Positions 15,840 to 64,000 of a stretch of DNA of 64,000 bases are shown here, in pieces (positions within the stretch are counted from its first letter, which is position 1; the number at the start of each line of letters is the position of its first letter). The notes beneath the pieces were generated by a model. That model had not been told where the DNA came from and made no database searches. It saw only the letters and a list, made by a program, of their open reading frames with translations. The stretch is from Microglena sp. YARC (taxonomy: Eukaryota > Chlorophyta > Chlorophyceae > Chlamydomonadales > Chlamydomonadaceae). Location: assembly GCA_022414725.1 (NCBI GenBank), contig CM039462.1:129878845-129942844 (forward strand), given 5' to 3'. The translations under genes were made by a program, and so were the position numbers.

Positions 15840-15981
15840 TCAAGAGTCTGAAGGCTGCGCCTCTACCATTGAGACGATGACTGTGATGTCATCCATTTTC
15901 CCACCGGAGAGGGAGGCCAGTTGGAGCCGCCCATCTTTGAAACTCATACCCAGTAGCTTTTCATAAAAAGGCATGTCCAAT
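15840..15981 (-). CDS. PTC7: PTC7 terminal exon with stop
   Basis: 142 nt; acceptor CTGCCTTAG|ATTGG. It completes the split Gly codon of the preceding exon, reads LDMPFYEKLLGMSFKDG.. and then LSGGKMDDITVIVSMV, ending AQPSDS and TGA. GGKMDDIT contains the C-terminal metal-binding Asp of PP2C enzymes. Confidence 0.9.
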
Positions 15982-16739
15982 CTAAGGCAGAGGGGCAAGA
16001 ACGGGACAAAAGTTAGTTGTGTGTGCGGTGTGCGGTTTGTTGGTGTGGGGGGTAAGGGTAGGTATGTATGTGGGTGTGGAAGGGTGTATGTTGTTGAGGT
16101 TGGGTGGATGAGTAAGAGGGCCAGTTGGAGCCGCCCATCTTTGAAACTCATACCCAGTAGCTTCTCGTAAAAAGGCATGTCCAAACTAAGGCAGAGGGGC
16201 AAGAACGGGACAAAAGTAAGTTGCGTGTGCGGTGTGTGGGTGTGGGGGGTAAGGGTAGGTATGTACGAGGTGTGGGTGGGTGGGTGGGTGGGTGTGGGTG
16301 GGTGTATGTTGTTGAGGTTGGGTGGATGAGTAAGAGGGCCAGTTGGAGCTGCCCATGTTCGAAACTCATACCCAGTAGCTTCTCGTAAAAAGGCATGTCC
16401 AATCTAAGGCAGAGGGGCAAGAACGGGACACAAGTAAGTTGCGTGTGCGGTGTGTGTGGGGGGGGGTGTATGTTGTTGAGATTGGGTGGATGAGTAAGAG
16501 GGTCAGTTGGAATCCCCCCCCCCCCCCCCCCCCCCCCCCCTGCCCCCCCCTTGAAGCTCATGCCCAGTAGCTTTTCATAAAAAAGCAGATCCAAGGTAGG
16601 GCAGAGGGGTAAGAACGGGACACAAGTTAATTGCGTGTGTGTGGGGGGGGGGTGGGGGGTGTATGTTAGTGAGGAGAGTGTGTATGTTGGGGGGGTAAGA
16701 ACGGGACATAAGTTAGTTGCGTGTGTGTGTGGTGTGTGT

Positions 16740-16770: not shown

Positions 16771-19405
16771 GGGGGGTATGTTTGTGAGGGGAGTGTGTAT
16801 GTTGGGGGGCAAGAACGGGACATAAGTTAGTTGCGAAGTTAGGCGACATGAAGCCATCATCCTCAGCATGCTCCCTTGCCCTAGCTCACAGCCGGTCGGC
16901 GGCATTTTGCAAGTGAGCCACGCTCTTAGGTTCACCCCCCGCACACCCACCACCCGACCCACACTACCACCACCCGTGCCCTTCTGGACTCACCCTTGTG
17001 CGAGGTCCTCGTTGGTATAAAGCGACATGAAATCATCGTCCTCAGCATGCTCCCTTGCCCTAGCGCACAGCCGGTCGGCAGCATCTTGCAAGTCAGCCAC
17101 ACTCTTAGGTTCACGCCCTGCCCCCCGCACAACGCCCAACCCACACCACCACCACCCGTGCCCTTCTGGACCTCACCCTTGTGCGAGGGCCTCGTTGGTG
17201 TAAGGCGACATGAAATCATCATCACCAGCGTGCTCCCTTGCCCTAGCGCACAGCCGGTTGGCCGCATCTTGCAAATCAGCCGCGCTCTTAGGGCCAAGCT
17301 CGATGAGCTCCGACTCGAACACGTTGTCCCACAGCCCGTCGCTGCCCGCGATGATCACGTCTCCGGGCAGTACGGGTATGTTGTACAGTTCGGCCTGCTC
17401 AGCGGTGTCGGTAGCCTCAACGAACTCGGGGAAGGCTCCGAATTGCAGGGGGCAGTCGAAGTAGTGCTGCGGGTGTGTGGGGTGGGGTGTGGGTGAGTGT
17501 GTGAGGGTGCTGCGGTGTGTGGGTGGGTGCGTGTCCGTAGCTACCTGCGATGATCACGTCTTCGGGCAGTACAGGTATGTTGTACAGTTCTGCCTGCTCA
17601 GCGGTGTTGGTGGCCTCGACGATCTCGGGGAAGGCTCCAAATTGCAGGGGGCAGTCGAAGTAGTGCTGCGGGTGTGTGGGGTTGGGGTGGTTGGTTGGGG
17701 TGCAGTGGGCAGTCGAAGTAGTGTTGCGGGTGTGTGGGGTTGGGGTGGTTGGTTGTGGGGGGTTGGTTGGGGTGCAGGGGGCAGTCGAAGTAGTGCTGCG
17801 GGTGTGTGGGGGTTGGGGTGGGTTTGGGTAGTTGGTTGTGGGGGGTTGGTTGGGGTGCAGGGGGCAGTCGAAGTAGTGCTGCAGGTGTGTGGGGTTGGGT
17901 TAGTTGGGGTGGTTGGTTGGGATGCAGGGGGCAGTCAAAGTAGTGCTGCGGGTGTGTGGGGTTGGGTTGGTTGGGTTGGTTGGTTGGGGTGCAGGGGGCA
18001 GTCTAAGTAGTGCTGCAGGTGTGTGGGGGTGGGGTGGTTGGGTGGATAGATGGGGTTGGGTTGGGTTGGGGTTGGGTAGGTGGTTTGGGTGGCCAAGTTA
18101 GAAGACTGAATTGCTGAGGGCAGTCCAAGTAGCGCTGGTTGGAGGTGGGTGGTACAAATAAAAACATGACAATCGTGTGTATATATACATATAGGTAGAT
18201 AGATGTGTTGAACATACTATACCATGTATATATATGCTCAATATAGTTACCATTGTGGTATATATATTTATATATATATATATATATTTTTTTCCCTTCA
18301 TATTATACCTGTTTTATACCATTCAAATATATGCTAAATATAGTACATAGCATGTTTGTGTGTTACCTGCAAGGGCCGGGACTTGGCGAGGACTGCACCG
18401 TCCCGGAGTACCATGAAGCCAGAGTCATCCAAGTTGGCGGCAACTTATACATTTATATACCGGTATACATGCAACACAAAAATGAATAAATAAATCAATA
18501 TGTATTACCTGCAAGGTCCAAGACGTCAGGAAGACTGCACCGTTACGGAGTACCATGAAGCCAGAGTCGCCCAAGTTGGCTGCAACTGATTCATTCATGT
18601 ACTAGTATGTCAAATAAATACATAAATAAATAGATAATAATAAATAAATAATACTACATAAATCTGAATAAATAAATAATAATAAATACATGTATTACCT
18701 GCAAGGGCCGGGACTTTGCGAAGACTGCACCGTTACGGAGTACCATGAAACCTGAGTCGCCCAAGTTGGCTGCGACCAAAGCTGAGTTGTCAACATCTAG
18801 CTGCATCACACAGCATTCATATCGTTTTTTTACATATGAGATATACCATTTATATATGTGCTTAATATATTATATACCATTGTTGTGTATTACCTGCAAG
18901 GGCCGGGACTTGGCGAGGACTGCACCGTTGCGGAGTACCATAAAACCAGAGTCGCTCAAGTTGGCGGCGACCAAGGCAGAATTGTCAGCATCTAGCTGCA
19001 TCACACAGCATCAATACATACATTTGTTTTTGAAACATATGAGATATGCCATTTATATATTGGCTAAGTATAGTATATAGCATGTTTGTGTATCACCTGC
19101 AAGGGCCGGGACTTGGCGAGCACAGCCCCGTTGCGGAGTACCATGAAACCTGAGTCGCCCAAGTTGGCTGCGACCAGAGCTGAGTTGTCAGCATCTAGCT
19201 GCATCACACAGCATGTGGCAGATCCTGGCAGCTTGGTGCCCATGTGAGCCACATGCATGGCGCCCTGGGAGGGGTGAGGGTGAGGGAGGGGGTGGATGGA
19301 TGGGATGGGGTGGTTTTGTGTGGGGGTGGGGGGTGGGGGGTGGGATGGGTGTTAGTGTGTGTGTGTGTGCTACATGCATGGCGCCCTGGGAGGGGTGAGG
19401 GGGAG

Positions 19406-19456
<51 letters not shown>

Positions 19457-19624
19457 GGGGGGGGGGGGGGGAAGGGGGGGGGGGGGGATGGGATGGGTTA
19501 GGGGGGGTCCTAGTTGCCAGCATCTAGCTGCATCACACAGCATGTGGCAGATCCTGGCAGCTTGGTGCCCATGTGAGCCACATGCATGGCGCCCTGGGAG
19601 GGGAGGGGAGGGGAGAAGGGGAGT

Positions 19625-19655
<31 letters not shown>

Positions 19656-22600
19656 GGGGGATGGGATGGGTGAGAGGGAGTACAGAGGTGACAGCATCTA
19701 GCTGCATCACACAACATGAAATAGCTGCATCACACAACATGGAATAGCTGCATTGGATCGGCATCTCGCCGCTGTTCAAGGAGCGCAGTAAAAATAAAAA
19801 TAAAATCAATAAGTATAATAAATAAATAAATAAAACAAAATCAATACATAAATATAATCAATAAACAAACAAACAAAATAGATTAGTAAATAACCATGGG
19901 ATCGATCAAGAATCCAGTTTCCTTCCCCACTCCTAAAAAATGAATCAATAAAGAAAGCAATACAGTAAATAAACGCCACAAATCCCACCTACAATCCCAC
20001 CCACACCACACCACCCACCTTTGGATCGATCAAGAATCCAGTTTCCCTGCCTTTGGTCCTCCTCAAACTGCACCTTTTCCTCCAAAACATCGCGCGAGAC
20101 CCACATCTTTTCACTTTTCAAGTAGTGCATGAGTAAATGAGTCCAAGCCACTCACCTTGGGATCGATCAAGAATCCAGTTTCCTTGCTTTTGCTCTCCTC
20201 CCCTCTCCTCTAAAAAAACTTAGAAGATAGAAGAAGAAAAAAGTCAAAAGATAGAAGAAAAATCATATCGTGGGATCGATCAAGAATCCAGTTTCCCTGC
20301 TTTTGCTCCCCTCCTCAAACTGCCCCTTTCCCTCCAAGAAATCGCACAAGACCGACATCTGATCACTTTTCAAGTAGCACATTAAGAATATATAAAAATG
20401 CGCTAGGAATAACCACATTAAGAATAAATAAATAATAAATAAATAATAAAATCACTTTTCAAGTACCACATTAAGAATAAATAAATGATAAATAAATAAT
20501 AAAATCACTTTTCAAGTACCACATTAAGAATAAATAAATAATAAATAAATAATAAAATCACTTTTCAAGTACCACATTAAGAATAAATAAATAATAAATA
20601 AATAATAAAATCACTTTTCAAGTACCACATTAAGAATAAATAAATAATAAATAAATAATAAAATCACATTTCAAGTACCACATTAAGAATACATAAATAA
20701 TAAATAAATAACAAAATCACTTTTCAAGTACCACATTAAGAATAAATAAATAATAAATAAATAATAAAATCACTTTTCAAGTACCACATTAAGAATAAAT
20801 AAATAATAAATAAATAATAAAATCACTTTTCAAGTACCACATTAAGAATAAATAAAATAATAAATAAATAATAAAATCACTTTTCAAGTACCACATTAAG
20901 AATAAATAAATAATAAATAAATAATAAAATCACTTTTCAAGTACCACATTAAGAATAAATAAATGATAAAATCACTTTTCAAGTACCACATTAAGAATAA
21001 ATAAATAATAAATAAATAATAAAATCACTTTTCAAGTACCACATTAAGAATAAATAAATAATAAATAAATAACAAAATCACTTTTCAAGTACCACATTAA
21101 GAATAAATAAATAATAAATAAATAATAAAATCACTTTTCAGGTACACATTAAGAATAAATAAATATAAATAAATAATAAAATCACTTTTCAAGTACCACA
21201 TCTAAGAATAAATTAAATAATAAATAAATAATAAAATCACTTTTCAAAGTACAACTTAAGAATAAATAAATAATAAATAAATAACAAAATCACTTTTCAA
21301 GTACCACATTAAGAATAAATAAATAATAAATAAATAACAAAATCACTTTTTCAAGTACCAACATTAAGAATAAATAAATAATAAATAAATAAATAAAATC
21401 ACTTTTCAAGTACCACATTAAGAATAAATAATAAATAAATACAAATCACTTTTCAAGTACCACATTAAGAATAAATAAATAATAAATAAAATAACAAAAT
21501 CACTTTTCAAGTACCACATAAGAATAAATAAATAATAAAAAATAACAAATCACTTTTCAAGTACACATTAAGAATTAAAAAAATCACTTTTCTAGTAGCA
21601 CATTGAGAATAAATAAAAGTGCGCTAGGAATAAATGAGTCCCACCCACAGTAACAATAGTAAAAAAAAAAAAAACGCCACTTACCTTGGGATCGATCAAG
21701 AAGCCAGTTTCCCTGCTCTTGCTCTCCTCCTCAAACTTCCCCTTTCCCTCCAAGAAATCGCGTGAGATGGACATGAGGGATCGTGAGTAGTCGGCGGGGT
21801 TCACCCCGCTGTCGGCCCAGCCCCCCACTCCATCGGCCACGCCCAGCGCTCCCCCGTGGTGCTCACTGACAAAGTGGGCGTCCTCGCCACCGTAGTGCTC
21901 CTGGAGTGTTGGGGTGGAGAGTGTGGGGGGTGGGGAAGGGGGGGTGGGGGTGGATTGTGTGTGTGTGTGTCTGGGGGGGGGGGGGGGGGATGTGTGTGTG
22001 TGTGTGGGGGGGGGGGGGGGCAGTGTGTGTGTGAGTGCTCACTGACTAAGTGGGCGTCCTCACCACCGTAGTGCTCCTGGAGGTTGGGGTGGACTTCATG
22101 TGTGTGTGTGTGTGTGGGGGGGGGGGGGGGATTGTGTGTGTGTGGTGGTGGTGGTGGTGTGTGTGGGGGGGGGGGGCAGTGTGTGTGAGTGCCTCACTGA
22201 CAAAGTGTGTGTCCTCACCACCATAGTGCTCTTGATTGTCAGGGTGGGGTGGGTGGGGTGTGAGGTGTGGGTGGCGGGGTGGGTGGTGAATGTGTGCATG
22301 TGGTGGTGGAGTGGAAAGTGGCGGTGGAGTGGACTGAAATGCAGCAGTGGTGTATTGTAGTGTAGTGTAGCGGAGAGTGGTGGAATGGAGTGGAGTGGAG
22401 AGGAGAGTGAGCATTGACACCTCCCCCCCCCCCCCCCCCCCCCCCCCCCCTACACCCACCCACCCCACCTCACCACTTTACTCTTATTCTCTAGCTTCAA
22501 ATGTAAAAGCTGAAGTAACAAGCATAGGAACCCTGCGCCACCTCAGGATGAGTTGTGGAGTGGAGAGTGCCTTTCCCACCCCACCCCCCACACACCCACA

Positions 22601-30010: not shown

Positions 30011-30019
30011 TTATATATA

Positions 30020-30173
30020 GGGATCGGCATATCATATGATGTTGGCCAAAGGTGAGTATGATATCCTACAAATTGTATCATATGATATTGTATTTAAATT
30101 GTAACTTTGGCCTAGCCAGACTGACGGCATCATACGATATCATGATATCATATGATGTCATACTGCCGTTCCC
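30020..30173 (+). mobile_element. MITE-like element, copy 1 (154 bp, TA target duplication)
   Basis: Terminal inverted repeats GGGATCGGCA...TGCCGTTCCC (one mismatch) flanked on both sides by TA. The interior is rich in the palindromes ATCATATGAT and GATATC, so most of the element can fold back. Size, TIRs and TA duplications resemble non-autonomous Tc1/mariner-type elements. Confidence 0.65.
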
Positions 30174-30245
30174 TACTTATAATATGCAAGGTCTGGCATG
30201 TAGCAAAGCTGGAGCTAGACCTCGAATGCTCATGCAGAATGACTA

Positions 30246-30419
30246 GGGATCGGCATATCATATCATGTTGGCCAAAGTTGAGTATGATATCATTTGATAT
30301 CATACAAATTGCATCAAATGACCGCAAATGATATTGTTTGTAAATTGTAACTTTGGCCTAGTCAGACTGCCGGCATCATATGATATCATGTGATGACAAG
30401 ATGACATGTTGCCGTTCCC
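30246..30419 (+). mobile_element. MITE-like element, copy 2 (174 bp)
   Basis: Same ends as copy 1 (GGGATCGGCA...TGCCGTTCCC, TA on both sides) and the same interior order (TGTTGGCCAAA, GTGAGTATGATATC or GAGTATGATATC, GTAACTTTGGCCTAG). It starts 73 bp after copy 1 in the same orientation. Confidence 0.65.
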
Positions 30420-30484
30420 TACGTATATAACAGATAGGCAGTACAGTACAGGGTGCTACATTGGGTCAATTGGGGTTGTATCAA

Positions 30485-30692
30485 AAGAGCAACTGCTTTT
30501 ATGGGAAAGTGTTTACAATCGTTATGGAACAGAGAGGTGCGCAGACATTAAGTAGCAAGGCACCTCGTGAATGTTTAGGTGCGACCTAACCACAGTACAC
30601 GCCAGAGGTATAACTAACTGGCGTGGTCACAGTCACAAGCTGACTGGACATGACGGACACGTGGTCTCTAGCAGGTACCACCCGTGTGCCAC
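30485..30692 (-). repeat. Dispersed repeat D, copy 1
   Basis: About 205 bp sharing order and orientation with 42797-43012: GTGTTTA, ATCGTTA.GGAACAGAGAGG, GACATTAAGTAGCAAGGCAC, GCCAGAGGTATAACTAACTG, GCGTGGTCACAGTCACA and CTCTAGCAGGTACC. It abuts the 3' end of the Dualen-like LINE. Confidence 0.8.
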
Positions 30693-30734
30693 AAGGTACG
30701 GAAAAAAAAGATAACGCCTGGAGGGGCGTGGTGT

Positions 30735-55544: not shown

Positions 55545-58500
55545 CAGGCACACCCATACCTACGCCCCCCCCCCCCCCCCCCTACACACACCCATCTCCA
55601 CACACTAACCTCCGGCTTTAGGGTCGTCCAGCGGTAAAGAGGACTTGCGTAAAAGAGAAAATACTTATCTCCCCCCCACCCCCACCCCCCACCCAAACAC
55701 ATATCCCCCCATCCCCACCCACATGCCCCCACCTACCCACCCCCACCCACATACCCCCCACCCCCACCCACATTGCCCCCCACCTACCCCTCTACCCATC
55801 TCTACACAACTAACAAAATTAACACCTCCGGGCTCAGGGTCGTCACACAAACACACAAACACACCCACCCACCCACACCCACCCACCCACCCACCCACCC
55901 ACACACACACAAGCACAAACACACACACACACACACACACACACAAAACACACACAACAAACCATCTCTTACACAATCACCTCTGGCTTAGGGTCGTCCA
56001 GCGGTAAAGAGGAGTTGCGTGAGAGAGCGAGGGAGGAGCATGAGTTGATCTGCCCGCGTGCATAGGCGGCCTCGATGTCGTCCATGGCACGGCCCTCGCG
56101 CGTGAGGTAGCTGGTGGGAAGGTTCTGAAAGTAGTGTAACCTAGTGAGGTGGGTGGGGGCCATTGGTTAGGTTGGGTCAGTTAGTTTGGGTAGTTAGGCC
56201 CTCGCGCATGGGGTAGCTGGTGGGAAGTTCTGGAAGTAGTGTAACCTAGTGAGGTGGGGTGGGGTGTTTGGGTGGGTGGTTGGGGTGGGTGTTGGGGTGG
56301 GTGTTGGGGTGGGTGTTGGGGTGGGTGTTGGGGTGGGTGTTGGGGGCATTGGTTAGGTTGGGTCAATTAGGTGTGTTTGGTCTCGGTGAGGAGACTTCAG
56401 TTGTGCATTGATACCCCCCCCCCCCCCCCCCTCCTCCCTCTTGTCCGTAGCCCCCCTCTTGTCCCCACTTCAACTCACAAGGTTTTCCATGAAGTCTTGG
56501 TCAGTGCTGTTGTACCCCCCCCCCCCCCCCCCCCCCCCCCCTCCCCCCTCTTGTCCGAAGCCCCCCTCTTGTCCCAATTCAACTCACAAGTCTCCATGAA
56601 GTCTTGGTCAGTGCTGTTGTACCCCCCCCCCCCCCCCCTCTTGTCCGATGCCCCCCTCTTGTCCCACTTAAACTCACAAGTCTCCATGAAGTCTTGCTCA
56701 GTGTACACACACACACACACACCCTCTTGTCCGTAGCCTTCCCTTTCCCTTTGTCCGCAGCCCCCCCTCTTGGCCCACTTCAACTCACAAGGTCTCCATG
56801 CAGTCTTGGGTCAGTGTCCCCACCCCACCCCACCCCCCCTCTTGTCCGTAGCCCCCTTTCCCCTTGTCCGGAGCCCCCCCTCTTGTCCACTTCAACTCAC
56901 AAGGTCTTCCAGAAGTCTTGGTCAGTGCTTGAAGTCAAGGGGGCCGATGTGAAACACTAGGCGCTTGAACGATGTGATAGCGTTCACCTGGTGAAGGGGA
57001 CGGTGTGTGTGTCTTTTTGTGTGCGTGGGTGTGTGTGCGTGTGTGTGTGTGTGTGTGTGTATGTATGTTTGTGTGTGTTTGTGTGTGCTTATGTGTTTGT
57101 GTATCTATGTATGTGTGTGTGTGTGAAACACTAGGCGCTTGAATGATGTGATGGCGTTCACATGGTCAAGGGGGGCGGTGTGTGTGTTTGTGTGTGTGCG
57201 TTTTGAACGGGGGGTATGGGATGGGGATTTTGTGATTTTTAGTTTTGGTTTGTTTGGTTTGGTTTGTTTGGGTGGGTAGGGGTAGGGGGCCGATGTGAAG
57301 CACTAGGCACTTGAATTAGTTGATGGCGTTCACATGGTGAGGGGGGATGGGTGTGTGTGTGTGTTGTGTGTGTGTGTGTGTGTGTGTATGTGTTGTGTGT
57401 TTTGTGTGTTTGTGTGCGTGCGTGTTGTGTGTTTGTGAAACACTAGGCGCTTGAATGATGTGATGGCGTTCACATGGCCAAGGGGGACAAGAGGAGGGGG
57501 GACAAGAGTTGTGTTGTGTTGTTTTGTGTTGTGTTGTGTTGTGTGTTGTGTTGTTTTGACCACTCACACACGCACCTCCACGACCCCACTGTGTGTGCTG
57601 TTGCTAGAAGCCGCCTTATCCCTTGGCCTCCGCACTTGCGATGATGAAGTGTATCCACACAGCCACACACACCCACTCACACACACACAAACAGCCATGC
57701 CCACACACGCACCTCCACGGCCCCACTGGGTGCGCTGTTGCTAGACGCCGCCTTATCCCTTGGCCTCCGCACTTGCGATGATGAAGCATATCCACACAGC
57801 CACATCCACCCACTCACACACACAAAGACCCATGCCCAAACACGCACCTCCACAGCCCCACTGGGTGTGCTGTTGCTAGACGCCGCCTTATCCCTTGGCC
57901 TCCGCACTTGCGATGATGAAGCGGGCCCAGTCACCTCGGCCAGGGAGCGCCCCACCGACGACATTGTGCGCACGAGGTCGAAGTAGATGAGCGGTTGCTT
58001 GTCCGTGGTATTCAGGATGCGGCGCAGCGTTCGCTGGTTGGCGTTCTCAATGGGAAGGAGCTTGTCGCCCAGCAGTTGGGATTTTGCCTGGCCAAGGGGG
58101 GGAAGGGGGTGGGGGGTATGGGAGGAGGGGAGGGTTGGGAATGGGAGGGGGAGGAATGGGCGGGGGGGGGGGGGGGGGGAATCAGGATGCGGAGAAGCGT
58201 TCGCTGGTTGGCGTTCTCAATGGGGAGGAGCTTATCGCCCAGCAGTTGGGGATTTTGCCTGGCCAAGGGGGAAGGGGGGTGGGTGGGGGTGGGGGTATGG
58301 GAGGAGGGGAGGGTTGGAATGGGAGGGGGAGGAATGAGCGGGGGAAGGGGGGTGGGGGTGGGGTGCGGGGGTGGGGGTTATGGGAGGAGGGAGGGTTGGG
58401 AATGGGAGGGGGAGGAATGGGCGGGGGGAGGGGGGGTGGGGTGGGGGTGGGGTGGGGGGTATGGGAGGAGGGAGGGTTGGGAATGGGAGGGAGAGGAATG

Positions 58501-61500
58501 GGCGAGGGGAGGGGGGTGGGGCGTGGGGGTGGGGTGGGGGGGCGTGGGGGGGTATGCGAGAGGAGGGGAGTTGGGAATGGGAGGGGAGGAATGAGCGGGG
58601 GGAGGGGAGGGGGTGGGGGTGGGGGGTGGGGGGTATGGGAGGAGGGGAGGTTGGGAATGGAGAGGGGAGGAATGAGCGGGCGGGGGAGGGGGTGGGTGGG
58701 GGTGGGGTGTGGTGGGGTATGGGAGGAGGGGAGGGTTGGGAATGGGAGGGGGAGGAATGGGCGGGGGAGGGTCAGGATGCCAGGCGGCGTTCGCTGGTTA
58801 GCGTTGTCTATGGGGAGAAGCTTGTCGCCCAGCAGTTGGATTTTGCCTGGCCAAAGCGGACGAGAGGGGGGGGGAGAGGAGAGGAGGGGAGGGAGAGGAG
58901 AGGAGGGAGGGGAGGGAGGGGAGGGGGCGGGGTATAGGAGGGGGATGGTATGGGAGGGGAGAGCACTCACATACACATTCTCACAGCCACCCACCTGAGC
59001 AATCTGCTTGTCAGCTGAACTGATCACCACTGGCCGCATGGTGTTCAAGGCTTGTTGTCAAGCTGCAAGAATTCAATCACATCACACCCCACACAACAAC
59101 CCACTCACATCCACCCACCTGAGCTCTCTGCTGCTTGTCAGCCGGACTGATCACCACAGGCCGCTTTGCAGTACCCAGCTCTGCAGAGTGGCCTGGTGCA
59201 CCCATCTCTCTAGTTGCCTACCCACTTACCCACTAACCCACTTTCCCAATTTCGACTTTGCAGTTCCCAGCTCTGCTGAGTGGGCAGGTGCACCCACCTT
59301 TCTACTTGCCCCAACCCCAACCAACCAACCCCGTCCCCAACCCCAACCAACCAACCACCCCATCCAACCAACCATCCTTGCACCCACCTTTCTACTTGCC
59401 CCAACCCCAACCAACCAACCCCGGCCCCAACCCCAACCAACCAACCACCCCATCCAACCAACCATCCTTGCACCCACCTTTCTACTTGCCTACCCACTTC
59501 CCCACTTTCCCAACTTCCACTCAGCAGCTTTTCAAGTTGCCTACCCACTCACATCCACCCACCTGGGCGCTCTGTTTGTCAGCTGGACTGATCACCACAG
59601 GCCGCATGGTGTTCAAGGCTTGGTTGTCAAGCTGCAGCGATTCACACCCACCCACATCCACCCACCCACCCACTCGCAGCCACTCACCTGAGCGCTCTGT
59701 TTGTCAGCTGGACTGATCACCACTGGCCGCATGGTGTTCAAGGCTTGGTTGTCAAGCTGCAAGGATTCAATCACAGCCGCTAACTGTAGGTCTGCCTGGG
59801 TCTGCAACATACACGCGCGGATCTGGTGGAGGGTGAAGTTGAAGAGTTCGTAGACATTGCTCTTAGCGCAGAGGCCGATGCCAGCCATATCGAGAGTGAA
59901 GTCTAGCTGGACTCCTTCCATCTGAGAGGGGTGGTGGGTGGGTGTGGGGTGGGGTGTGGGTTGGTTGGATGGAGTGGGGTGGGAGTAGGGTGGGTGGGTG
60001 AGTAGGTGGGAGTGGGTTGGATGGGTGTGGGTAGGGTGGAGGGGTGGATGGTGTGGGGGGTGGGAGTGAGTTAGGTGGGTTGGATGGAGTGGGGGGGTGG
60101 GATGGGGGGTGGGGTGGGATGCTGTGTGGTGGGGTGGGGTGGGGTGGGGGGTAGCACCGCACAGTCCGATAGCAGCCATGCCCCCCCACCACACCCACCA
60201 CACCCCAACCCCCCATTTTCCTTGTTTTAACACAACACACCTCAGGTTTGATGATCTGCCACCCTCAGGAAGACCTCCACGGTAGCAGTCCGCCCTTGAC
60301 TGGAAACCTGTGTGTGCTGGTGACCTGTGTATCCCCTCCCTCCCCTCACTCTACCCCCACCACCCATCCACCAGCACACACACCCCACCCCCCCATTTCC
60401 TTGTTTTAACACACACACCTCAGGTTTGATGATCTGCACCCTCAGGAAGACCTCCAGGTAGCAGTCCGCCCTTGACTGGAAACCTGTGTGTGCTGGTGAC
60501 CTGTGTTATCCCCTCCCCTCCCCTCACTCTACCCCCACCACCCATGCACCAAGCACACCACACCCACCCCCTTCATTTCCTTGTTTTAACACACCACACC
60601 TCAGGTTTGATGATCTGCACCCTCAGGAAGACCTCCAGGTAGCAGTCCGCCCTTGACTGGAAACCTGTGTGTGCTGGTGACCTGTGTTATCCCCTCCCCT
60701 CCCCTCACTCTACCCCACCACCCATCCACCAGCACACACACCCACCCCCCCCATTTCCTTGTTTTAACACACACACCTCAGGTTTGATGATCTGCACCCT
60801 CAGGAAGACCTCCAGGTAGCAGTCCGCCCTTGACTGGAAACCTGTGTGTGCTGTGACCTGTTTATCCCCTCCCCTCCCCTCACTCTACCCCACCACCCAT
60901 CCACCAGCACACACACCCACCCAACCCATTTCCTTGTTTTAACACACACACCTCAGGTTTTGATGATCTGCACCCTCAGGAAGACCTCTAGGTAGCAGTC
61001 TGACCTTGACTGGAAACCTGTGTGTGCTGGTGACCTGTGTTATCCCCTCCCCTCCCCTCACTCTACCCCACCACCCATCACACACACCCACCCCCCCATT
61101 TCTTGTTTTAACACACACACCTCAGGTTTGATGATCTGCACCCTCAGGAAGACCTCCAGTAGCAGTCCGCCCTTGACTGGAAACCTGTGTGTGCTGGTGA
61201 CCTGTGTTATCCCCTCCCCTCCCCTCACTCTACCCCCACCACCCATCCACCAACACACACACACCCCCCCCCTTTCCTTGTTTTAACACACACACCTCAG
61301 GTTTGATGATCTGCAACCCTCAGGAAGACCTCCAGGTAGCAGTCCGACCTTGACTGAAACCTGTGTGTGCTGGTGACCTGTGTTATCCCCTCCCCTCCCC
61401 TCACTCTACCCCCACCACCCATCACCACACACACACCCACCCCCCCATTTCCTTGTTTTAACACACACACCTCAGTTTGATGATCTGCACCCTCAGGAAG

Positions 61501-64000
61501 ACCTCCAGGTAGCAGTCCGCCCTTGACTGGAAACCTGTGTGTGCTGGTGACCTGTGTTATCCTCCCCCCAGTCCCCTCCCCTCATCCCCTCCCCTCCCCT
61601 CCACCCCCACCACCCATCCACCAGCACCACACCCACCCCCCCCCCCATTTCCTTTTTTAACACACACACCTCAGGTTTGATGATCTGCACCCTCAGGAAG
61701 ACCTCCAGGTAGCAGTCCGCCCTTGACTGGAAACCTGTGTGTGCTGGTGACCTGTTATCCCCTCCCCTCCCCTCACTCTACCCCCACCACCCATCCACCA
61801 GCACACACACCCACCCCCCCATTTCCTTGTTTTAACACACACACCTCAGGTTTGATGATCTGCACCCTCAGGAAGACCTCCAGGTAGCAGTCCGCCCTTG
61901 ACTGGAAACCTGTGTGTGCTGGTGACCTGTGTTATCCCCTCCCCTCCCCTCACTCTACCCCACCACCCATCCACCAGCACCCCCCCCCCCCGCCCCCCCC
62001 CCCCATTTCCTTGTTTTAACACACACACCTCAGGTTTGATGATCTGCACCCTCAGGAAGACCTCCAGGTAGCAGTCCGCCCTTGACTGGAAACCTGTGTG
62101 TGCTGGTGACCTGTGTTATCCCCTCCCCTCCCCTCACTCTACCCCCACCACCCATCCACCAGCACACACACCCACCCCCCCATTTCCTTGTTTTAACACA
62201 CACACCTCAGGTTTGATGATCTGCACCCTCAGGAAGACCTCCAGGTAGCAGTCCGCCCTTGACTGGAAACCTGTGTGTGCTGATGACCTGTGTTATCCCC
62301 TCCCCTCCCCTCACTCTACCCCCACCACCCATCCACCAGCACACACCTCCCCCCACCCCCCCCCCCCCCATTTCCTTGTTTTTAACACACACACCTCAGG
62401 TTTTGATGATCTGCACCCTCAGGAAGACCTCCAGGTAGCAGTCCTGCCCTTGACTGGAAACCCTGTGTGTGCTGGTGACCTGTGTTATCCCCTCCCCTCC
62501 CCTCACTCTACCCCCACCACCCATCCAGCACACACACCCACCCCCCCATTTCCTTGTTTTAACACACACACCTCAGGTTTGATGATCTGCACCCTCAGGA
62601 AGACTCCTAGGTAGCAGTCCGCCCTTGACTGGAAACCTGTGTGTGCTGGTGACCTGTGTTATCCCCTCCCCTCCCCTCACTCTACCCCCACCACCCATCC
62701 ACCACACACACCCCCCCCCCCCCATTTCCTTGTTTTAACACACACACACCTCAGGTTTGATGATCTGCACCCTCAGGAAGACCTCCAGGTAGCAGTCCGC
62801 CCTTGACTGGAAACCTGTGTGTGCTGGTGACCTGTGTTATCCCCTCCCCTCCCCTCACTCTACCCCCACCACCCATCCACCAGCGCACACACACCCCCCC
62901 CCATTTCCTTGTTTTAAACACACACACCTCAGGTTTGATGATCTGCACCCCTCAGGAAGACCTCCAGGTAGCAGTCCGCCCTTGACTGGAAACCTGTGTG
63001 TGCTGGTGACCTGTGTTATCCCCTCCCCTCCCCTCACTCTACCCCCACCACCCATGCACCAGCACACACACCCACCCCCTCATTTCCTTGTTTTAACACA
63101 CACACCTCAGGTTTGATGATCTGCACCCTCAGGAAGACCTCCAGGTAGCAGTCCGCCCTTGACTGGAAACCTGTGTGTGCTGGTGACCTGTGTTATCCCC
63201 TCCCCTCCCCTCACTCTACCCCCACCACCCATCCACCAGCACACCCCCCCCCCCCCATTTCCTTGTTTTAACACACACACCTCAGGTTTGATGATCTGCA
63301 CCCTCAGGAAGACCTCCAGGTAGCAGTCCGCCCTTGACTGGAAACCTGTGTGTGCTGGTGACCTGTTTATCCCCTCCCCTCCCCTCACTCTACCCCCACC
63401 ACCCATTCCACCAGCACACACACCCACCCCCCCATTTCCTTGTTTTAACACACACACCTCAGGTTTGATGATCTGCACCCTCAGGAAGACCTCCAGGTAG
63501 CAGTCCGCCCTTGACTGGAAACCTGTGTGTGCTGGTGACCTGTGTTATCCCCTCCCCTCCCCCCACTCTACCCCCACCACCCATCCACCAACACACACAC
63601 CCACCCCCCCCTTTCCTTGTTTTTAACACACACACCTCAGGTTTGATGATCTGCACCCTCAGGAAGACCTCCAGGTAGCAGTCCGCCCTTGACTGGAAAC
63701 CTGTGTGTGCTGGTGACCTTGTGTCACCCCCTCCCCTCCCCCCACCCCACCCCCCCACCCAGCAACACACATACACATTTCCTAGTTTTAACACAAAAGG
63801 TTTGATGATCTGCACCCCCAGGAAGACCTCTAGGTTGATATACACATACCCCATACCTCCTCCGTACACACACACCACCACCACTACACACACCTCTGGT
63901 TTGATGATCTGCACCCGCAGGAAGACCTCCAGGTTGCAGTCCGCCCTTGACTGGAAACCTGTGTGTGCTTCCATTGCACTCGCCTCACTCCCAGTGCGGT
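43480..64000 (-). CDS. VPS13: VPS13-family lipid-transfer protein gene, C-terminal half (whole locus)
   Basis: VPS13 proteins are bridge-like lipid transporters at membrane contact sites; the C-terminal half contains the SHR/VAB-to-ATG2_C region and a PH-like end. From the right edge, the exons encode [37 protein letters not shown].. with [18 protein letters not shown] (compare 'IQLDNQ..YPVVL' in VPS13), [17 protein letters not shown].., several short segments, and a contiguous in-phase set of seven exons ending the protein. Those give [20 protein letters not shown].., [18 protein letters not shown] (VPS13 'G..KG..G...RP..G..D'), [32 protein letters not shown] and a Ser/Arg-rich end. The 5' half lies beyond the window. 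Every exon has echoes. Confidence 0.88.
43561..43797 (-). CDS. VPS13: VPS13 terminal exon with stop
   Basis: 237 nt including TAG; acceptor CCCCCAG|TTCATG. It encodes [34 protein letters not shown] and then a tail ending PKPPAPRQ. It follows [19 protein letters not shown] in phase and forms the end of the PH-like domain. A partial repeat of its 3' end (CCTTCACCTATTGGCGAGGT) lies just downstream at 43488-43555. Confidence 0.85.
   Translation of the reverse strand, partial: FMGLSLNLPVRKGLRCNDEESHRSLIYRLNRHMGKDYSGEMAMRGMRNEASGIGRDVLDLAIGLPRHSAAPKPPAPRQ
43798..44290. repeat. Higher-order 80-bp minisatellite (5 x 16 bp) in VPS13 intron
   Basis: After a G-run (43804-43827), 16-bp subunits of the type AAGTCAGTTAGCTGTT are arranged as an 80-bp higher-order unit (subunits ending GGATGCT, AGCCATTTAGC, ACGTCATTTAGC, AGCTGGT, AGCTGTT). 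Four nearly perfect 80-bp periods run from about 43970. Confidence 0.93.
44291..44370 (-). repeat. Echo of VPS13 exon VKWVIPNQ, 3' part
   Basis: CCTACCTCCACTGATTCGGT to GGTCCTCTCCACTG repeats the last ~50 nt of the exon at 44550, with the donor, in diverged form. Confidence 0.8.
44550..44642 (-). CDS. VPS13: VPS13 exon VKWVIPNQ
   Basis: 93 nt, 31 codons, phase 0-0; acceptor ACTGAAG|GTGAAA and donor GTGGAG|GTAAGG. Encodes [17 protein letters not shown] and [14 protein letters not shown], part of the C-terminal PH-like region ('...WxIxxxxIxxI...'). Confidence 0.9.
44815..45010 (-). repeat. Two echoes of VPS13 exon HVAYLYAK, 3' part
   Basis: The last ~60 nt of the exon with its donor (CTTACCTTGTATGTGACTG to CATGCTGTCGGGAATGGCG) recur at 44815-44877 and 44946-45009, separated by (GT)n tracts. 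Confidence 0.92.
45052..45207 (-). CDS. VPS13: VPS13 exon HVAYLYAK
   Basis: 156 nt, 52 codons, phase 0-0; acceptor CACCCAG|GTCATT and donor TACAAG|GTAAGC. Encodes [32 protein letters not shown] and [29 protein letters not shown] corresponds to the 'R-[IV]-L-[LV]-[TS]..' strand opening the VPS13 PH-like domain. Confidence 0.92.
45340..45700 (-). repeat. Two echoes of VPS13 exon GKLVRRIT, 3' part, with C-runs
   Basis: GCGAGGTCAGCATCC..GAGGCAGGGAGCTCTG recurs at about 45354-45398 and 45541-45600. Long C-runs (45401-45419, 45607-45638) cut into both copies. Confidence 0.88.
45742..45897 (-). CDS. VPS13: VPS13 exon GKLVRRIT
   Basis: 156 nt, 52 codons, phase 0-0; acceptor CCCCCAG|GGCAAG and donor GACAAG|GTGAGG. 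Encodes [15 protein letters not shown], then a helical [20 protein letters not shown] and ADFANDK. Confidence 0.9.
45900..46260. repeat. (GTGTGGGTGTGGGG)n intronic microsatellite
   Basis: GTGTGGGTGTGGGG-type repeat, about 350 bp, G/T only on plus; His/Pro-Thr and Gly/Val/Cys translations are artefacts. Confidence 0.9.
46315..46720 (-). repeat. Three echoes of VPS13 exon [12 protein letters not shown], 3' part
   Basis: CCTGGATGCCC..CTTCCCCAAACACA..GTCAATGACACC recurs at about 46321-46395, 46460-46555 and 46605-46705. These encode variants of [19 protein letters not shown], and the copies carry substitutions and small indels. Confidence 0.92.
46760..46947 (-). CDS. VPS13: VPS13 exon [12 protein letters not shown]
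   Basis: 188 nt; completes a split Gly codon and ends in phase 0 at ATCCAG|GTGTGTG. Encodes [40 protein letters not shown] and [20 protein letters not shown]. It closely follows the VPS13 pattern of Gly-Lys-Gly and RPxxGxID motifs in the ATG2_C-like region. Confidence 0.93.
46950..47330. other. GT-rich then AT-rich intron segment
   Basis: A G/T-rich tract to 47010, then AT-rich with TATATGTA/ATGTATTATATG repeats at 47060-47155. Nothing else recognised. Confidence 0.6.
47335..47580. repeat. 17-bp minisatellite derived from VPS13 exon sequence
   Basis: About 14 copies of TTGGAGCCTGACCCAGT. The parental exon contains CAGTTTGGAGCCTGAGTCAA, and the right edge of the array (TTGGAGCCTGGGTCAATATC) extends further along that exon sequence. 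The unit appears to be a 17-bp piece of the SGSKLL coding sequence amplified in tandem. Confidence 0.9.
47795..48520 (-). repeat. Five echoes of VPS13 exon GLGGGLEG, 3' part
   Basis: CACCTTCCAGTCC..CGCCTAGTCCCATCATAATG and TCGTTCTGTGCCTGGTAC recur at about 47810-47890, 47998-48052, 48142-48190, 48270-48330 and 48430-48515. They are separated by AACTCAACCTGATCCAA-type intron repeats. Some copies lost pieces of the exon. Confidence 0.9.
48639..48824 (-). CDS. VPS13: VPS13 exon GLGGGLEG
   Basis: 186 nt, phase 1-1; acceptor CCCCCAG|GCCAGG and donor GGAAG|GTGAGC. Encodes [40 protein letters not shown] and [14 protein letters not shown], continuing into GFLLDPYEG of the next parental exon. Confidence 0.9.
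48830..49075 (-). repeat. Echo of VPS13 exon GLGGGLEG, 5' part, with GTGGT repeat
   Basis: 49000-49071 repeats the first ~70 nt of the exon (GCCTCTGAACCGGCAGCACC to ACCTGGCCTGG) with small indels, after a GTGGTGGGTG tract. Confidence 0.88.
49076..49655 (-). repeat. Echoes of the next exon's donor end, in GT-rich intron
   Basis: CAGACCTACCCATGGAGG and neighbouring GTGAACATGTAGAAAC..GAGGGTATCT recur at about 49230-49280, 49340-49395, 49460-49478 and 49547-49562, separated by GTGGGTGTGG tracts and a G-run (49606-49645). Confidence 0.85.
49672..49830 (-). CDS. VPS13: VPS13 exon [10 protein letters not shown]
   Basis: 159 nt; acceptor ACATCCAG|GTAACT and donor CCATGG|GTAGGT. Phase with the next exon selects the frame [36 protein letters not shown] and [12 protein letters not shown]. 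Another frame is also open, so the choice rests on phase. Confidence 0.72.
49835..51500. repeat. CCAAGCCAACAAGCCAAGAT minisatellite
   Basis: About 1.5 kb of AAGCCAAGATCCAATCCTAT and CCAAGCCAAGCCAAC blocks. The left side begins with a 115-bp echo of the preceding exon's acceptor (CACTGGTCCCGCACCGCC at 49807 and 49948). The right half (50600-51480) has many indels. The Ser/Gln/Lys/Pro plus-strand frames are artefacts. Confidence 0.93.
51505..51600 (-). repeat. Old echo of VPS13 exon [10 protein letters not shown], 5' part
   Basis: The minus strand reads [19 protein letters not shown], alignable with the alternative-frame [16 protein letters not shown] of the exon at 49672; clearly more diverged than the other echoes. 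Confidence 0.6.
51615..52595 (-). repeat. Twelve-copy echo array of a 39-nt VPS13 exon
   Basis: About 12 units of 70-95 bp with CACCTTTTATGTTTCGGTCA and TTGCAATCCAGGTTAAGTG. The copy at 51617-51655 keeps an acceptor (GTGCAG|CGGCAC) and donor (GAAAG|GTGTGT) and is the likely parental exon: 39 nt, phase 1-1 if it joins the next exon. In most others the acceptor CAG has become CAAC and a TTAA stop-type change has entered. Confidence 0.8.
52600..52935. repeat. GGGTTTAGGG-like and AGTTGGAAGC minisatellites
   Basis: 52610-52735: diverged GGGGTTTAGGGTTTGGGGCT units. 52750-52935: about 17 copies of the 10-bp AGTTGGAAGC. Intronic. Confidence 0.88.
52960..53425 (-). repeat. VPS13 exon LIKVTNAP region, three copies
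   Basis: Copies at about 52955-52990 (short), 53098-53205 and 53283-53395. The minus strand reads [20 protein letters not shown] or [20 protein letters not shown]. One is the likely parental exon, but small indels prevent fixing its limits. VTNAP-type strands fit a beta-rich VPS13 segment. Confidence 0.65.
53538..53932. repeat. TGTATC / ATGCAATC microsatellite flanked by direct repeats
   Basis: (TGTATC)n with ATGCAATC interruptions. Both ends are the same 45-bp block (GAGTGCAGGCATATTACCAT, TTATATACAGCATCATGCAA) at 53539 and 53888, so the whole is an internal expansion of a duplicated segment. Confidence 0.9.
53936..53990 (-). mobile_element. Truncated MITE-like element, copy 3
   Basis: Reverse complement of the first ~55 bp of the 30-kb elements: GATATCATACTCACCTTTGG to TGCCGGTCCC, followed by TA. 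Only one terminal repeat remains. Confidence 0.65.
54020..54775 (-). repeat. Four copies of a VPS13 exon [12 protein letters not shown]
   Basis: CCTCCCTGCCC(A/T)GCGCCCCCGC and TGTCCTGG..AGCATGCT recur at about 54024-54070, 54233-54284, 54489-54534 and 54720-54765. They encode [16 protein letters not shown] with a donor GGGAG|GTATG. The intervening introns share AAAGCAAAACACATGC-type repeats. I could not decide the parental copy; 54487 has the cleanest reading. Confidence 0.75.
54840..55325 (-). repeat. Four copies of a VPS13 exon [12 protein letters not shown]
   Basis: Copies at about 54852-54925, 54967-55040, 55074-55143 and 55241-55312, all encoding [20 protein letters not shown] with acceptor CTCCAG or TCTAG|GTTGCC/GTGGCC. 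Protein reading is almost invariant among copies. None shows an obvious GT donor after GACCAGAG, so the parental limits are open. Confidence 0.75.
55326..55960. repeat. C-run/CA-run intron with echoes of the next exon's donor end
   Basis: Long C-runs (55391-55411, 55446-55479, 55515-55543, 55565-55582) and (CA)n. TCCGGCTTTAGGGTCGTCCA at 55610-55645 and a shorter piece at 55825-55845 repeat the donor end of the exon at 55981. Confidence 0.85.
55981..56124 (-). CDS. VPS13: VPS13 exon [16 protein letters not shown]
   Basis: 144 nt (48 codons) if the acceptor is CTTTCAG|AACCTT; an alternative acceptor CACTAG|GTTACA would add about 17 nt. Donor CCAGAG|GTGATT. Encodes [40 protein letters not shown] and PLDDPKPE. 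No motif beyond family context is recognised. Confidence 0.75.
56165..56360 (-). repeat. Echo of the same exon's 5' end and GGGTGGGTGTTG repeat
   Basis: 56198-56250 repeats GCCCTCGCGCATG..GGTAGCTGGTGGGAAG..GTAGTGTAACCTAGTGAGG. It is followed by six copies of the 15-bp GGGTGGGTGTTGGGG type. Confidence 0.85.
56400..56960 (-). repeat. Echo array TDQDFMETL with C-runs
   Basis: AACTCACAAG(G)TCT(T)CCATGAAGTCTTGG and TCAGTGCTGTTGTA recur at about 56471, 56579, 56671, 56783 and 56893 (last). On the minus strand they give TDQDFMETL or TDQDFWKTL followed by a GTGAGT donor. Each is followed by CCCCCCTCTTGTCC(G)TAG intron repeats. Confidence 0.82.
56925..57485 (-). repeat. Four copies of VPS13 segment [13 protein letters not shown]
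   Basis: GAAACACTAGGCGCTTGAA and GATGTGATGGCGTTCAC recur at about 56951-56990, 57123-57165, 57295-57337 and 57437-57478, with (GT)n between. The minus strand reads [13 protein letters not shown] with acceptor CCAG|GTGAAC in the lowest copy, which continues IGPLDFKH then meets TGA. A micro-exon junction or an assembly indel is needed to keep the frame. Confidence 0.75.
57575..57795 (-). repeat. Two echoes of VPS13 exon [14 protein letters not shown], 3' part
   Basis: 57579-57655 and 57709-57792 repeat the last ~80 nt of the exon at 57848 with its donor (GCACCTCCACGGCCCCACTG to CACTTGCGATGATGAAG). Confidence 0.92.
57848..58087 (-). CDS. VPS13: VPS13 exon [14 protein letters not shown]
   Basis: 240 nt, 80 codons, phase 0-0; acceptor TGGCCAG|GCAAAA and donor GTGGAG|GTGCGT. 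Encodes [40 protein letters not shown] and [14 protein letters not shown], then a Ser/Arg-rich end. It joins the preceding exon (..ADKQSAQ) in phase. Confidence 0.9.
58090..58860 (-). repeat. G-rich minisatellite with two echoes of the same exon's 5' part
   Basis: 58182-58265 and 58772-58857 repeat the acceptor and first ~80 nt (GCCCAGCAGTTGG..CAATGGG..TTCGCTGGTT). Between them lie about eight units of GGGAGGAGGGGAGGGTTGGG plus AATGGGAGGGGGAGGAATG. Confidence 0.92.
58990..59660 (-). repeat. Echoes of VPS13 exon [12 protein letters not shown], 3' part
   Basis: CACCTGAGC..CTGTTTGTCAGCTGGACTGA and TCACCAC(A/T)GGCCGC recur at about 58994-59075, 59118-59168 and 59561-59645. They are separated by CCCCAACCCCAACCAACCAA repeats, including a perfect ~80-bp duplication at 59292-59470. 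Confidence 0.9.
59688..59921 (-). CDS. VPS13: VPS13 exon [12 protein letters not shown]
   Basis: 234 nt, 78 codons, phase 0-0; acceptor CTCTCAG|ATGGAA and donor GCTCAG|GTGAGT. Encodes [38 protein letters not shown] and [20 protein letters not shown]. It aligns with the VPS13 pattern 'I.IP.LGIS.I......EL.Y..L..I......' then 'IQ.DNQ......PVV', the strongest family signature in the gene. Confidence 0.94.
59925..60235. repeat. GGGTGGG-rich intron
   Basis: GGTGGGTGTGGGGTGGGG tracts on plus, then CCACCCACCACACCCCAACC to the start of the exon array. Nothing else seen. Confidence 0.7.
60240..63975 (-). repeat. About 22-copy array of a 57-nt VPS13 exon with its intron
   Basis: Tandem units of about 175 bp. 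Each has TCAGGTTTGATGATCTGCAC, CCTCAGGAAGACCTCCAGGT and AGCAGTCCGCCCTTGACTGG followed by a (CA/C)-rich intron ending TTTCCTTGTTTTAACACACA. Core positions are about 60245, 60423, 60605, 60781, 60955, 61129, 61300, 61474, 61674, 61848, 62034, 62210, 62399, 62576, 62755, 62932, 63110, 63288, 63463, 63638, 63800 and 63898. On the minus strand each gives an acceptor (TTTCCAG), 19 codons [19 protein letters not shown] and a donor (GAG|GTGTGT); most are intact. The 63800 copy has lost half the exon, and 60245, 61300 and 62576 have small indels. Confidence 0.95.
63899..63955 (-). CDS. VPS13: VPS13 57-nt exon, most distal copy (possible parent)
   Basis: 57 nt, phase 0-0, reading [19 protein letters not shown]; it differs from the array consensus by Asn for Tyr and CCCGCAGG for CCCTCAGG. 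It alone has a different upstream flank (GAAGCACACACAGG preceded by unique sequence to the window edge), so it may be the ancestral copy. The upstream gene continues beyond 64000. Confidence 0.7.

What the first reader, a model, noticed from the sequence alone, without database searches (positions are those of the whole stretch)
15840..63975. Exon echoes: nearly every exon of two unrelated genes has tandem truncated copies beside it
In PTC7 (4 of 4 main exons) and VPS13 (all recognised exons) the parental, phase-consistent exon is accompanied by 1-21 adjacent partial copies. The copies usually retain one splice site plus a piece of flanking intron: acceptor-side copies lie upstream of the exon and donor-side copies downstream. 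Copies shorten and diverge with distance. This is not whole-gene duplication or alternative-exon evolution, but repeated local re-copying across each exon-intron boundary, as expected from template slippage or microhomology-mediated replication at (GT)n and poly-C tracts. I know of no described system of this regularity.
Basis: partly seen in the sequence, partly recalled or inferred. Interest (0 to 1): 0.88.

Follow-up and report, generated by a model that had tools for sequence, protein, structure and literature searches.

The report
Half-copied exons from rampant tandem duplication
In this stretch of a green alga's genome small pieces of DNA have been copied side by side so often that every exon found in two genes has incomplete copies of itself nearby, which the cell must presumably ignore when it splices the message.

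Summary
Twenty exons of a PTC7-type phosphatase and a VPS13-like gene (minus strand, Chlamydomonadales) give 104 partial copies, all in gene orientation, none inverted. Of 79 copies carrying one exon edge (20 V1-array copies and 5 internal ones set aside), all 30 acceptor-edge copies lie upstream and all 49 with the donor or 3' edge downstream; none has both.

The interpretation needs changing. The rule is forced by geometry: any head-to-tail duplication across one edge gives it. Duplication is not confined to exons: of 150 random 160-nt pieces each, 112 (introns free of exons and copies), 95 and 132 (two intergenic stretches) have local copies, against 4 in a LINE-bearing stretch. Copies do not significantly shorten or diverge with distance. 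Lack of whole-exon and within-exon copies hints at selection.

Unexpectedly, exon and copies differ mostly at synonymous sites (dN/dS 0.17; simulated in-place decay 0.43-0.47), though the amino-acid changes present look random: copies may keep exchanging sequence with working exons. The nearest precedent found is one such duplication in a potato gene. Genome-wide extent is untested.

The parts
15840..15981 (-). PTC7 exon P5 (last, with stop)
   Evidence: tblastn to PTC7 relatives; boundaries
16119..16620 (-). 3 upstream acceptor-edge copies of P5 (16119-16210, 16337-16428, 16551-16620; 97-87% identical), spacers repeated too
17177..17466 (-). PTC7 exon P4
16838..17109 (-). 2 downstream copies of P4 tail (16838-16930 stops short of the donor edge; 16970-17109 carries it)
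17535..18137 (-). 7 upstream acceptor-edge copies of P4; 5 of them are cut at the same exon position (23 nt)
19097..19265 (-). PTC7 exon P3
18342..19011 (-). 4 downstream donor-edge copies of P3; mostly synonymous differences
19364..19718 (-). 3 upstream copies of P3 (19685-19718 is internal, without the edge)
21685..21900 (-). PTC7 exon P2 (GVADGVGGW)
19893..20358 (-). 4 downstream copies of P2 tail, separated from P2 by a 53-bp satellite (20412-21584)
22035..22255 (-). 2 upstream acceptor-edge copies of P2
23052..23083 (-). PTC7 exon P1 end (PHPEK, donor); 5' limit uncertain
23723..24299 (-). 4 upstream copies of the P1 region within a 162-177-bp array (23096-24394)
43561..43797 (-). VPS13-like exon V15 (in-frame stop); downstream copy of its end at 43480-43550
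44550..44642 (-). exon V14; downstream copy 44295-44360
44794..45207 (-). exon V13 (45052-45207) with 2 downstream donor-edge copies (44925-45008, 44794-44877; 100% and 97.6% identical): the cleanest head-to-tail example
45351..45897 (-). exon V12 (45742-45897) and 2 downstream copies (one internal)
46310..46947 (-). exon V11 (46760-46947) and 3 downstream copies
47803..49094 (-). exon V10 (48639-48824), 5 downstream copies and 1 upstream copy (48998-49094)
49211..49995 (-). exon V9 (49672-49831), 2 downstream copies and 1 upstream copy
51601..52605 (-). exon V8 (52546-52605, boundaries uncertain) and 8 downstream copies
52942..53487 (-). exon V7 (53298-53487) and 2 downstream copies; a similar copy is built into the EukProt gene model P0122
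54020..55324 (-). exon V6 (54723-54913), 3 upstream and 3 downstream copies
55592..56264 (-). exon V5 (55981-56140), 1 upstream and 1 downstream copy
56452..57485 (-). exon V4 (56901-56988), 3 upstream and 4 downstream copies
57565..58874 (-). exon V3 (57848-58088), 2 upstream and 2 downstream copies
58980..59921 (-). exon V2 (59688-59921) and 3 downstream copies
60235..63970 (-). exon V1 (end at 63894; 5' limit set by me where the copies begin) followed by 21 copies of its tail, mostly 167-200 bp apart
28000..43200 (.). LINE-bearing stretch used as internal control (RVT_1 at 35375-36052; endonuclease-like match below Pfam cut-off at 37099-37503); almost no local duplication

Best explanation
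The resident (non-transposon) DNA of this region has been saturated by head-to-tail tandem duplications of short segments (median spacing of exon copies 174 nt) that fall on introns, intergenic DNA and exons alike. A duplication that covers one exon edge necessarily leaves the truncated copy outside the exon: acceptor-edge copies upstream, donor-edge copies downstream. Duplications that cover a whole exon or lie within one would add coding sequence and were probably removed by selection, so the survivors are half-exons with one splice site. Cut units were then duplicated again into arrays (21 copies at V1). Shown: orientation, edge rule, repeated spacers in most pairs, shared cut points, heavy duplication of non-exonic DNA. 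Inferred: selection as the filter; continuing exchange (unequal crossing-over or gene conversion) between copies and working exons, on this chromosome or other alleles, as the reason why divergence is mostly synonymous; splicing of the innermost acceptor-donor pair by exon definition.
For: 104 of 104 matches direct, 0 inverted, 20 of 20 exons. Edge rule 79 of 79. Sequence between copies is repeated too: 67 of 95 copy pairs (47 of 75 without V1) and 18 of 28 pairs next to the exon score above every spacer swapped in from other exons. Shared cut points 22 of 46 against 2.95 expected. Random 160-nt pieces with local direct copies: introns free of exons and copies 112 of 150, intergenic 95 and 132 of 150, LINE stretch 4 of 150, exon tiles 32 of 34. 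Tandem-repeat coverage 60-72% in the genes and 23.1-27.8 kb, 3% in the LINE stretch. Filter: with clear exons and unit lengths up to 260 nt, 4.3 of 22 first duplications (P = 10^-2.2), or 5.4 of 24 by smallest spacing (P = 10^-3.0), should be whole-exon or within-exon; observed 0. Exchange: dS 0.248, dN 0.041, ratio 0.167 (bootstrap 0.131-0.212) over 57 copies of 14 exons; PTC7 alone 0.157 (from sums I added by hand); in-place decay simulates at 0.43-0.47; amino-acid changes random (mean BLOSUM62 -0.53 against -0.43; stops 5 against 4.65).
Against: In 28 of 95 copy pairs (10 of 28 first pairs) the spacer match does not beat all controls; P5's downstream copy fails clearly (rank 55 of 65), so not every copy is a clean tandem unit. 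Exon tiles are matched somewhat more often than intron pieces (69 of 96 against 80 of 150 at 80 nt; 32 of 34 against 112 of 150 at 160 nt). Intergenic 9.7-15.8 kb has only 22% tandem-repeat coverage. The filter test is moderate; my first version (P = 10^-4.84) was inflated by the uncertain exon P1 and long spacings, and it assumes uniform placement and one event per edge. The dN/dS result alone does not tell exchange from a high-diversity population or from fast synonymous change in the exons. Donor-side or 3' edges carry copies more often (19 of 20) than acceptor-side or 5' edges (11 of 19, V7 not counted; Fisher p = 0.008), which blind duplication does not predict.
Confidence: 0.77

Rival explanations
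1. One reading: a process tied to exon-intron boundaries (template slippage or microhomology replication at flanking simple tracts) repeatedly re-copies each boundary.
For: Every exon is affected; exon tiles are matched somewhat more often than intron pieces; inner ends adjoin low-complexity sequence somewhat more than control pieces (39 of 79 against 35%).
Against: Intron pieces free of exons and copies and intergenic pieces are heavily duplicated too, one intergenic stretch nearly as much as exons or more by piece length; the edge rule follows from geometry; shared cut points; no significant distance gradient.
Confidence: 0.08
2. Assembly artefact: noisy long reads or unmerged haplotypes written out as tandem copies.
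For: The assembly is noisy: frame-breaking differences from EukProt model P0122 in V4, V6 and V7, a 1000-N gap, irregular low-quality repeats at 50.0-51.5 kb.
Against: Substitutions in exon parts outnumber indel events in the aligned stretches (417 to 156), unlike typical long-read error (recalled); the 15-kb LINE stretch of the same window shows almost none; cut points differ between exons; P0122's tail matches the V7 copy better than the exon (86 against 56), although its source assembly is unknown; a haplotype mix would not be expected to yield cut copies obeying the edge rule at 20 exons.
Confidence: 0.06
3. The copies have a function: alternative or regulatory half-exons or decoy splice sites kept by selection.
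For: Low dN/dS between copies and exons, also between copies (0.25) and between copies sharing a cut point (0.27).
Against: Amino-acid changes are random in type with stops at the neutral rate; 37 of 38 exon-part indels are not multiples of 3, some perhaps assembly noise; second splice site seen in 0 of 30 upstream and 1 of 49 downstream copies (background 12% and 0.6%, so the downstream figure says little); heavy duplication of non-exonic DNA.
Confidence: 0.05

Closest known systems
Boundary-crossing tandem duplication in the potato RdRp gene (Ma, Lan and Niu 2016, PMC4974935; abstract and Results section read)
   Same: A head-to-tail duplication spans an intron-exon boundary, so intron end, acceptor signals and exon start exist twice, with the truncated exon piece upstream.
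   Different: One event in one gene, verified by genomic reads and RNA-seq. There a new intron arose: a cryptic donor in the upstream copy is spliced to the downstream acceptor and only 10 nt of former exon became intron. Here 79 one-edge copies at exons of two genes, at both edges, arrays up to 21, no expression evidence.
Tandem genomic duplication model of intron gain (Rogers 1989; Hellsten 2011; as discussed in PMC4974935)
   Same: Short tandem duplications supply duplicated splice sites.
   Different: That model duplicates an AGGT-containing exon segment to make a new intron; here existing boundaries are duplicated and no new intron is inferred.
Tandem exon duplication and mutually exclusive exons (recalled, no call)
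   Same: Neighbouring copies of one exon within a gene.
   Different: Those copies are complete, with both splice sites and coding function; here 0 of 79 carry both edges.
Minisatellites and satellite arrays expanding by unequal exchange (recalled, no call)
   Same: Head-to-tail units, shared unit borders, near-uniform arrays such as V1.
   Different: Units here include pieces of constrained exons, so exchange could touch coding sequence.

Membership tests
Head-to-tail tandem duplication (minisatellite-like) | Copies in direct orientation, near each other | tested here: met
   104 of 104 direct, 0 inverted
Head-to-tail tandem duplication (minisatellite-like) | Whole unit, spacer included, is repeated | tested here: inconclusive
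   67 of 95 pairs above all controls, 28 not; 18 of 28 pairs next to the exon
Head-to-tail tandem duplication (minisatellite-like) | Unit borders shared among array members | tested here: met
   22 of 46 adjacent pairs within 3 nt, 2.95 expected, V1 and P1 left out
   160-nt pieces: exon tiles 32 of 34, introns free of exons and copies 112 of 150, intergenic 95 and 132 of 150, LINE 4 of 150; a modest exon excess remains
Tandem duplicated or mutually exclusive exons | Copies complete with both splice sites | tested here: not met
   0 of 79 with both edges (V1 undecided); second sites 0 of 30 and 1 of 49
Intron gain by tandem duplication | A new intron spliced out between duplicates | not testable with these tools
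   needs RNA-seq; none at hand
PTC7-type PP2C phosphatase gene | Homology over the spliced exons | tested here: met
   best E = 4.7e-123; best named relatives 62-66% identical; PF00481 23 bits, cut-off 20.3
VPS13 | Homology to VPS13 | tested here: met
   No Pfam hit and no PDB hit for one sequence; a two-sequence profile has only two PDB hits, VPS13C (E = 0.0033) and VPS13A (0.12), near their C-terminal ends: weak but specific

The most novel reading that the evidence does not exclude
In this alga working exons and their half-copies trade sequence and even places: unequal exchange regularly turns a copy's exon piece into part of the working exon and back, so most differences between copies are synonymous and non-coding half-exons come under indirect purifying selection. 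Genes then evolve as small concerted families of one real exon and many decoy splice sites, kept readable because the spliceosome takes the innermost acceptor-donor pair.
Probability: 0.3. Interest if true: 0.78.

Novelty: new variant of a known kind. Interest (0 to 1): 0.6.

Why it matters
It is a natural experiment on splice-site choice: real splice sites with one to some twenty near-identical decoys, mostly within a few hundred bases, in ordinary conserved genes. If transcripts are correct, exon definition (nearest acceptor-donor pair) must override identical flanking sites, which is directly testable. Duplication is dense enough that a filter by purifying selection may be visible, and non-coding copies may be exchanging sequence with coding exons. 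For annotation it warns that gene models in such genomes can swallow half-exons, as P0121 and P0122 appear to have done.

Tried and rejected
Distance gradient of length and identity: tested, not significant. Fixed nucleosome-like unit size: spacings scatter (10th to 90th percentile 93-244 nt), so dropped. The argument that last exons show copying of non-splice edges (P5, V15) was dropped: P5's downstream copies lie 0.3-1.3 kb away and the nearest has no repeated spacer, and V15's end reads TAG|GTGAAG, which could itself be a donor. Base composition as the cause of the third-position bias: rejected, because for each of the four bases position 3 changes most. Flanking-intron divergence as a neutral yardstick (mismatch 0.18 and 0.33 close to the edges, ungapped): too disturbed by indels. 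Private-versus-shared polarisation of changes: confounded by unknown copy ages. Internal repeats of P0121 by blastp gave nothing and were found by a direct window comparison instead. Rfam and ARAGORN found nothing useful.

Mended on re-check: a wrong expected value (negative, because P1 is shorter than the cut-off) was replaced. The intron control (136 of 150) let pieces overlap the copies themselves and is replaced. The filter test (10^-4.84) leaned on uncertain exon P1 and on long spacings; one search gives 10^-2.2 to 10^-3.0. The splice-site background (18% and 4%) included copies; one search gives 12% and 0.6%. Because of the modest exon excess I moved the main explanation from 0.80 to 0.77 and the boundary model from 0.06 to 0.08.

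Papers: searches for earlier reports of half-exon arrays are in an open-access library only; I saw 12 of 13, 20 of 338, 15 of 17,301, 15 of 73, 0 of 0, 10 of 13 and 5 of 5 listed entries, of which only PMC4974935 described the phenomenon by title or abstract start. PMC11228838 and PMC8226300 were seen in passages; PMC11457085 had no matching passage; one search was a listing on a possible host species and led nowhere.

Full report
WHAT IS THERE. The window is nuclear DNA of a chlorophyte, most likely Chlamydomonadales: the spliced PTC7-type protein has its best named relatives at 62-66% identity in Chlamydomonas, Tetrabaena, Dunaliella, Volvox and Haematococcus. The species was not identified. 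Both genes lie on the minus strand. The second gene is VPS13-like: no Pfam match and no PDB match for one sequence, but a two-sequence profile finds only VPS13C (E = 0.0033) and VPS13A (E = 0.12) in the PDB. EukProt protein P0122 carries this gene's exons V4 to V7 (98% over V5); as its frames are intact where the window's are broken, it probably comes from a cleaner sequence of the same species (inference).

CHECK OF THE OBSERVATION. Each of 20 exons with 25 nt of flank was searched against the whole window, both strands. 104 matches pass E<1e-3 and 18 nt of exon; every exon has at least one; all 104 are direct and none is inverted. Outside V1, 79 copies carry exactly one edge: 30 acceptor-edge copies, all upstream; 49 donor-edge copies, all downstream (3 of them ends of the last exons P5 and V15); none carries both; 5 matches are internal, one of them V1's. 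One of the 30 (V7, 19 nt, 2.95 kb away) is doubtful. V1's 20 array copies are set aside because the exon's 5' limit lies at the window end. Spacing between copies has median 174 nt, quartiles 127 and 192.

WHY THE EDGE RULE HOLDS. If a segment that covers intron end plus exon start is duplicated head to tail, only the second copy continues into the exon, so the truncated copy must lie upstream; for exon end plus intron start it must lie downstream. The rule is therefore a consequence of tandem duplication and says nothing about a boundary-specific machine. The tandem nature was tested separately: the sequence between two copies is itself repeated beyond the outer copy, better than any spacer swapped in from other exons, in 67 of 95 pairs (V1 gives 20 of 20, the rest 47 of 75) and in 18 of 28 pairs next to the exon. 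The other 28 pairs do not pass; P5 downstream fails clearly.

NOT CONFINED TO EXONS. With low-complexity masking, random 160-nt pieces have direct copies within 4 kb in 112 of 150 cases for introns free of exons and of the 104 copies, 95 of 150 for 9.7-14.4 kb, 132 of 150 for 24.45-26.6 kb, and 4 of 150 in the LINE-bearing stretch 28.0-43.2 kb; exon tiles of the same length give 32 of 34. At 80 nt the figures are 80, 80, 122 and 6 of 150, and 69 of 96. Exons are thus somewhat above introns, which masking of simple intron sequence and one-sided decay could produce, but I did not test that. Inverted copies within 4 kb: 2 to 11 of 150 for introns, 0 for exon tiles. Tandem-repeat coverage agrees: 60% and 65% in the genes, 72% in 23.1-27.8 kb, 22% in 9.7-15.8 kb, 3% in the LINE stretch (reverse transcriptase match). 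A plausible reading is that the LINE arrived recently; it also serves as a control against a general assembly artefact.

A FILTER, PROBABLY. With uniform placement and unit lengths up to 260 nt, and leaving out V1, V8, V15, P1, P5 downstream and V7 upstream, 4.3 of 22 first duplications should cover a whole exon or lie inside one (P of none = 10^-2.2); with the smallest spacing of each chain 5.4 of 24 (10^-3.0); none is seen. My first figure, 10^-4.84 for 28 edges, was inflated. The cut ends also tend to lack the second splice site: 0 of 30 upstream copies have a donor-grade site there against 12% at background positions away from exons and copies; for acceptors, 1 of 49 against 0.6% is uninformative. 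The simplest reading is that copies able to act as exons were removed by selection.

ARRAY GROWTH. Neighbouring copies share the same cut point within 3 nt in 22 of 46 cases, 2.95 expected (V1 and P1 left out), so cut units were duplicated again. Identity and length show no significant trend with distance (21 chains; p = 0.26 and 0.24). One search used 15 V1 copies because of a 2.9-kb limit; V1 was not in the counts.

THE UNEXPECTED PART. In 12 exons with a clear frame, differences between exon and copy fall on third codon positions: 153 against 51 and 43. Counted as synonymous and nonsynonymous over 57 copies of 14 exons: dS 0.248, dN 0.041, ratio 0.167, bootstrap over edges 0.131-0.212 (V1, V7, V8, V9, V15, P1 and the downstream copies of V4 and V6 were left out for unclear frames or boundaries). 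PTC7 alone gives 0.157 (from hand-added sums). A half-exon decaying beside a conserved exon simulates at 0.43-0.47; the data need about 0.04 of neutral path and 0.16-0.20 of constrained path. Copies compared with each other give 0.25, and copies with the same cut point 0.27. Base composition does not explain it. Yet the amino-acid changes that do occur are random in kind (mean BLOSUM62 -0.53 against -0.43; 5 stops against 4.65 expected; one search counts 4 stops by codon), and 37 of 38 exon-part indels break the frame (some may be assembly noise). So the copies look unconstrained now, but most of the divergence seems to have arisen while the sequence was coding. Non-nested site patterns, for example in P3, suggest exchange between copies and exons, or with exons of other alleles. 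This is inference; strain data are needed.

INDEPENDENT HINTS. P0122's C-terminal tail matches the V7 copy (score 86) better than the V7 exon (56), so a like copy seems present in that data set too. P0121, a VPS13-like protein with the same style of gene name (61% identical), has tandem partial repeats where the window has exons V6 and V13; its V13 repeats are of the exon start, while the window's V13 copies are of its end, which points to separate events.

COMPARISON. The closest described case I found is one boundary-crossing duplication in a potato RdRp gene (PMC4974935). The elements are known; saturation of every recognised exon of two genes, with synonymous-biased divergence, did not appear in the lists that my searches showed (open-access papers only).

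LIMITS. One window, two genes, one noisy assembly, no reads, no RNA. The host genome could not be searched. Donor-side or 3' edges are more often copied (19 of 20) than acceptor-side or 5' edges (11 of 19, V7 not counted), p = 0.008, for which I have no tested explanation.

Noticed in passing
74-5447: A 5.4-kb irregular TTGGG/TTGGGTTG array at the window start, followed by a run of N; the window holds 1000 N.
   Followed up: no
28000-43200: LINE-like element(s): reverse transcriptase (35375-36052, minus) and an endonuclease-like match below cut-off; almost free of local duplication.
   Followed up: partly
50000-51500: Very irregular (CAAGCCAAGATCCAATCCTATC)n stretch with many small indels, looks like poorly corrected long-read sequence.
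   Followed up: no
54723-54913, 53298-53487, 56901-56988: Exons V6, V7 and V4 carry frame-breaking differences from EukProt protein P0122, so base-level errors in this assembly are likely.
   Followed up: partly
60235-63711: The 20 full-length copies in the V1 array are near-identical and appear by eye to share a few substitutions against the exon, as if one copy was amplified recently.
   Followed up: partly
56438-56456 and 53469-53487: A 19-nt piece of V7's start recurs in the V4-V5 intron 2.95 kb away, the only match so far from its exon among upstream copies.
   Followed up: no
P0121 residues 440-502 and 819-892: A related VPS13-like gene model contains partial exon repeats at the positions of V6 and V13, probably half-exons swallowed by gene prediction.
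   Followed up: partly
all exon edges: Copies are commoner at donor-side or 3' edges (19 of 20) than at acceptor-side or 5' edges (11 of 19).
   Followed up: partly
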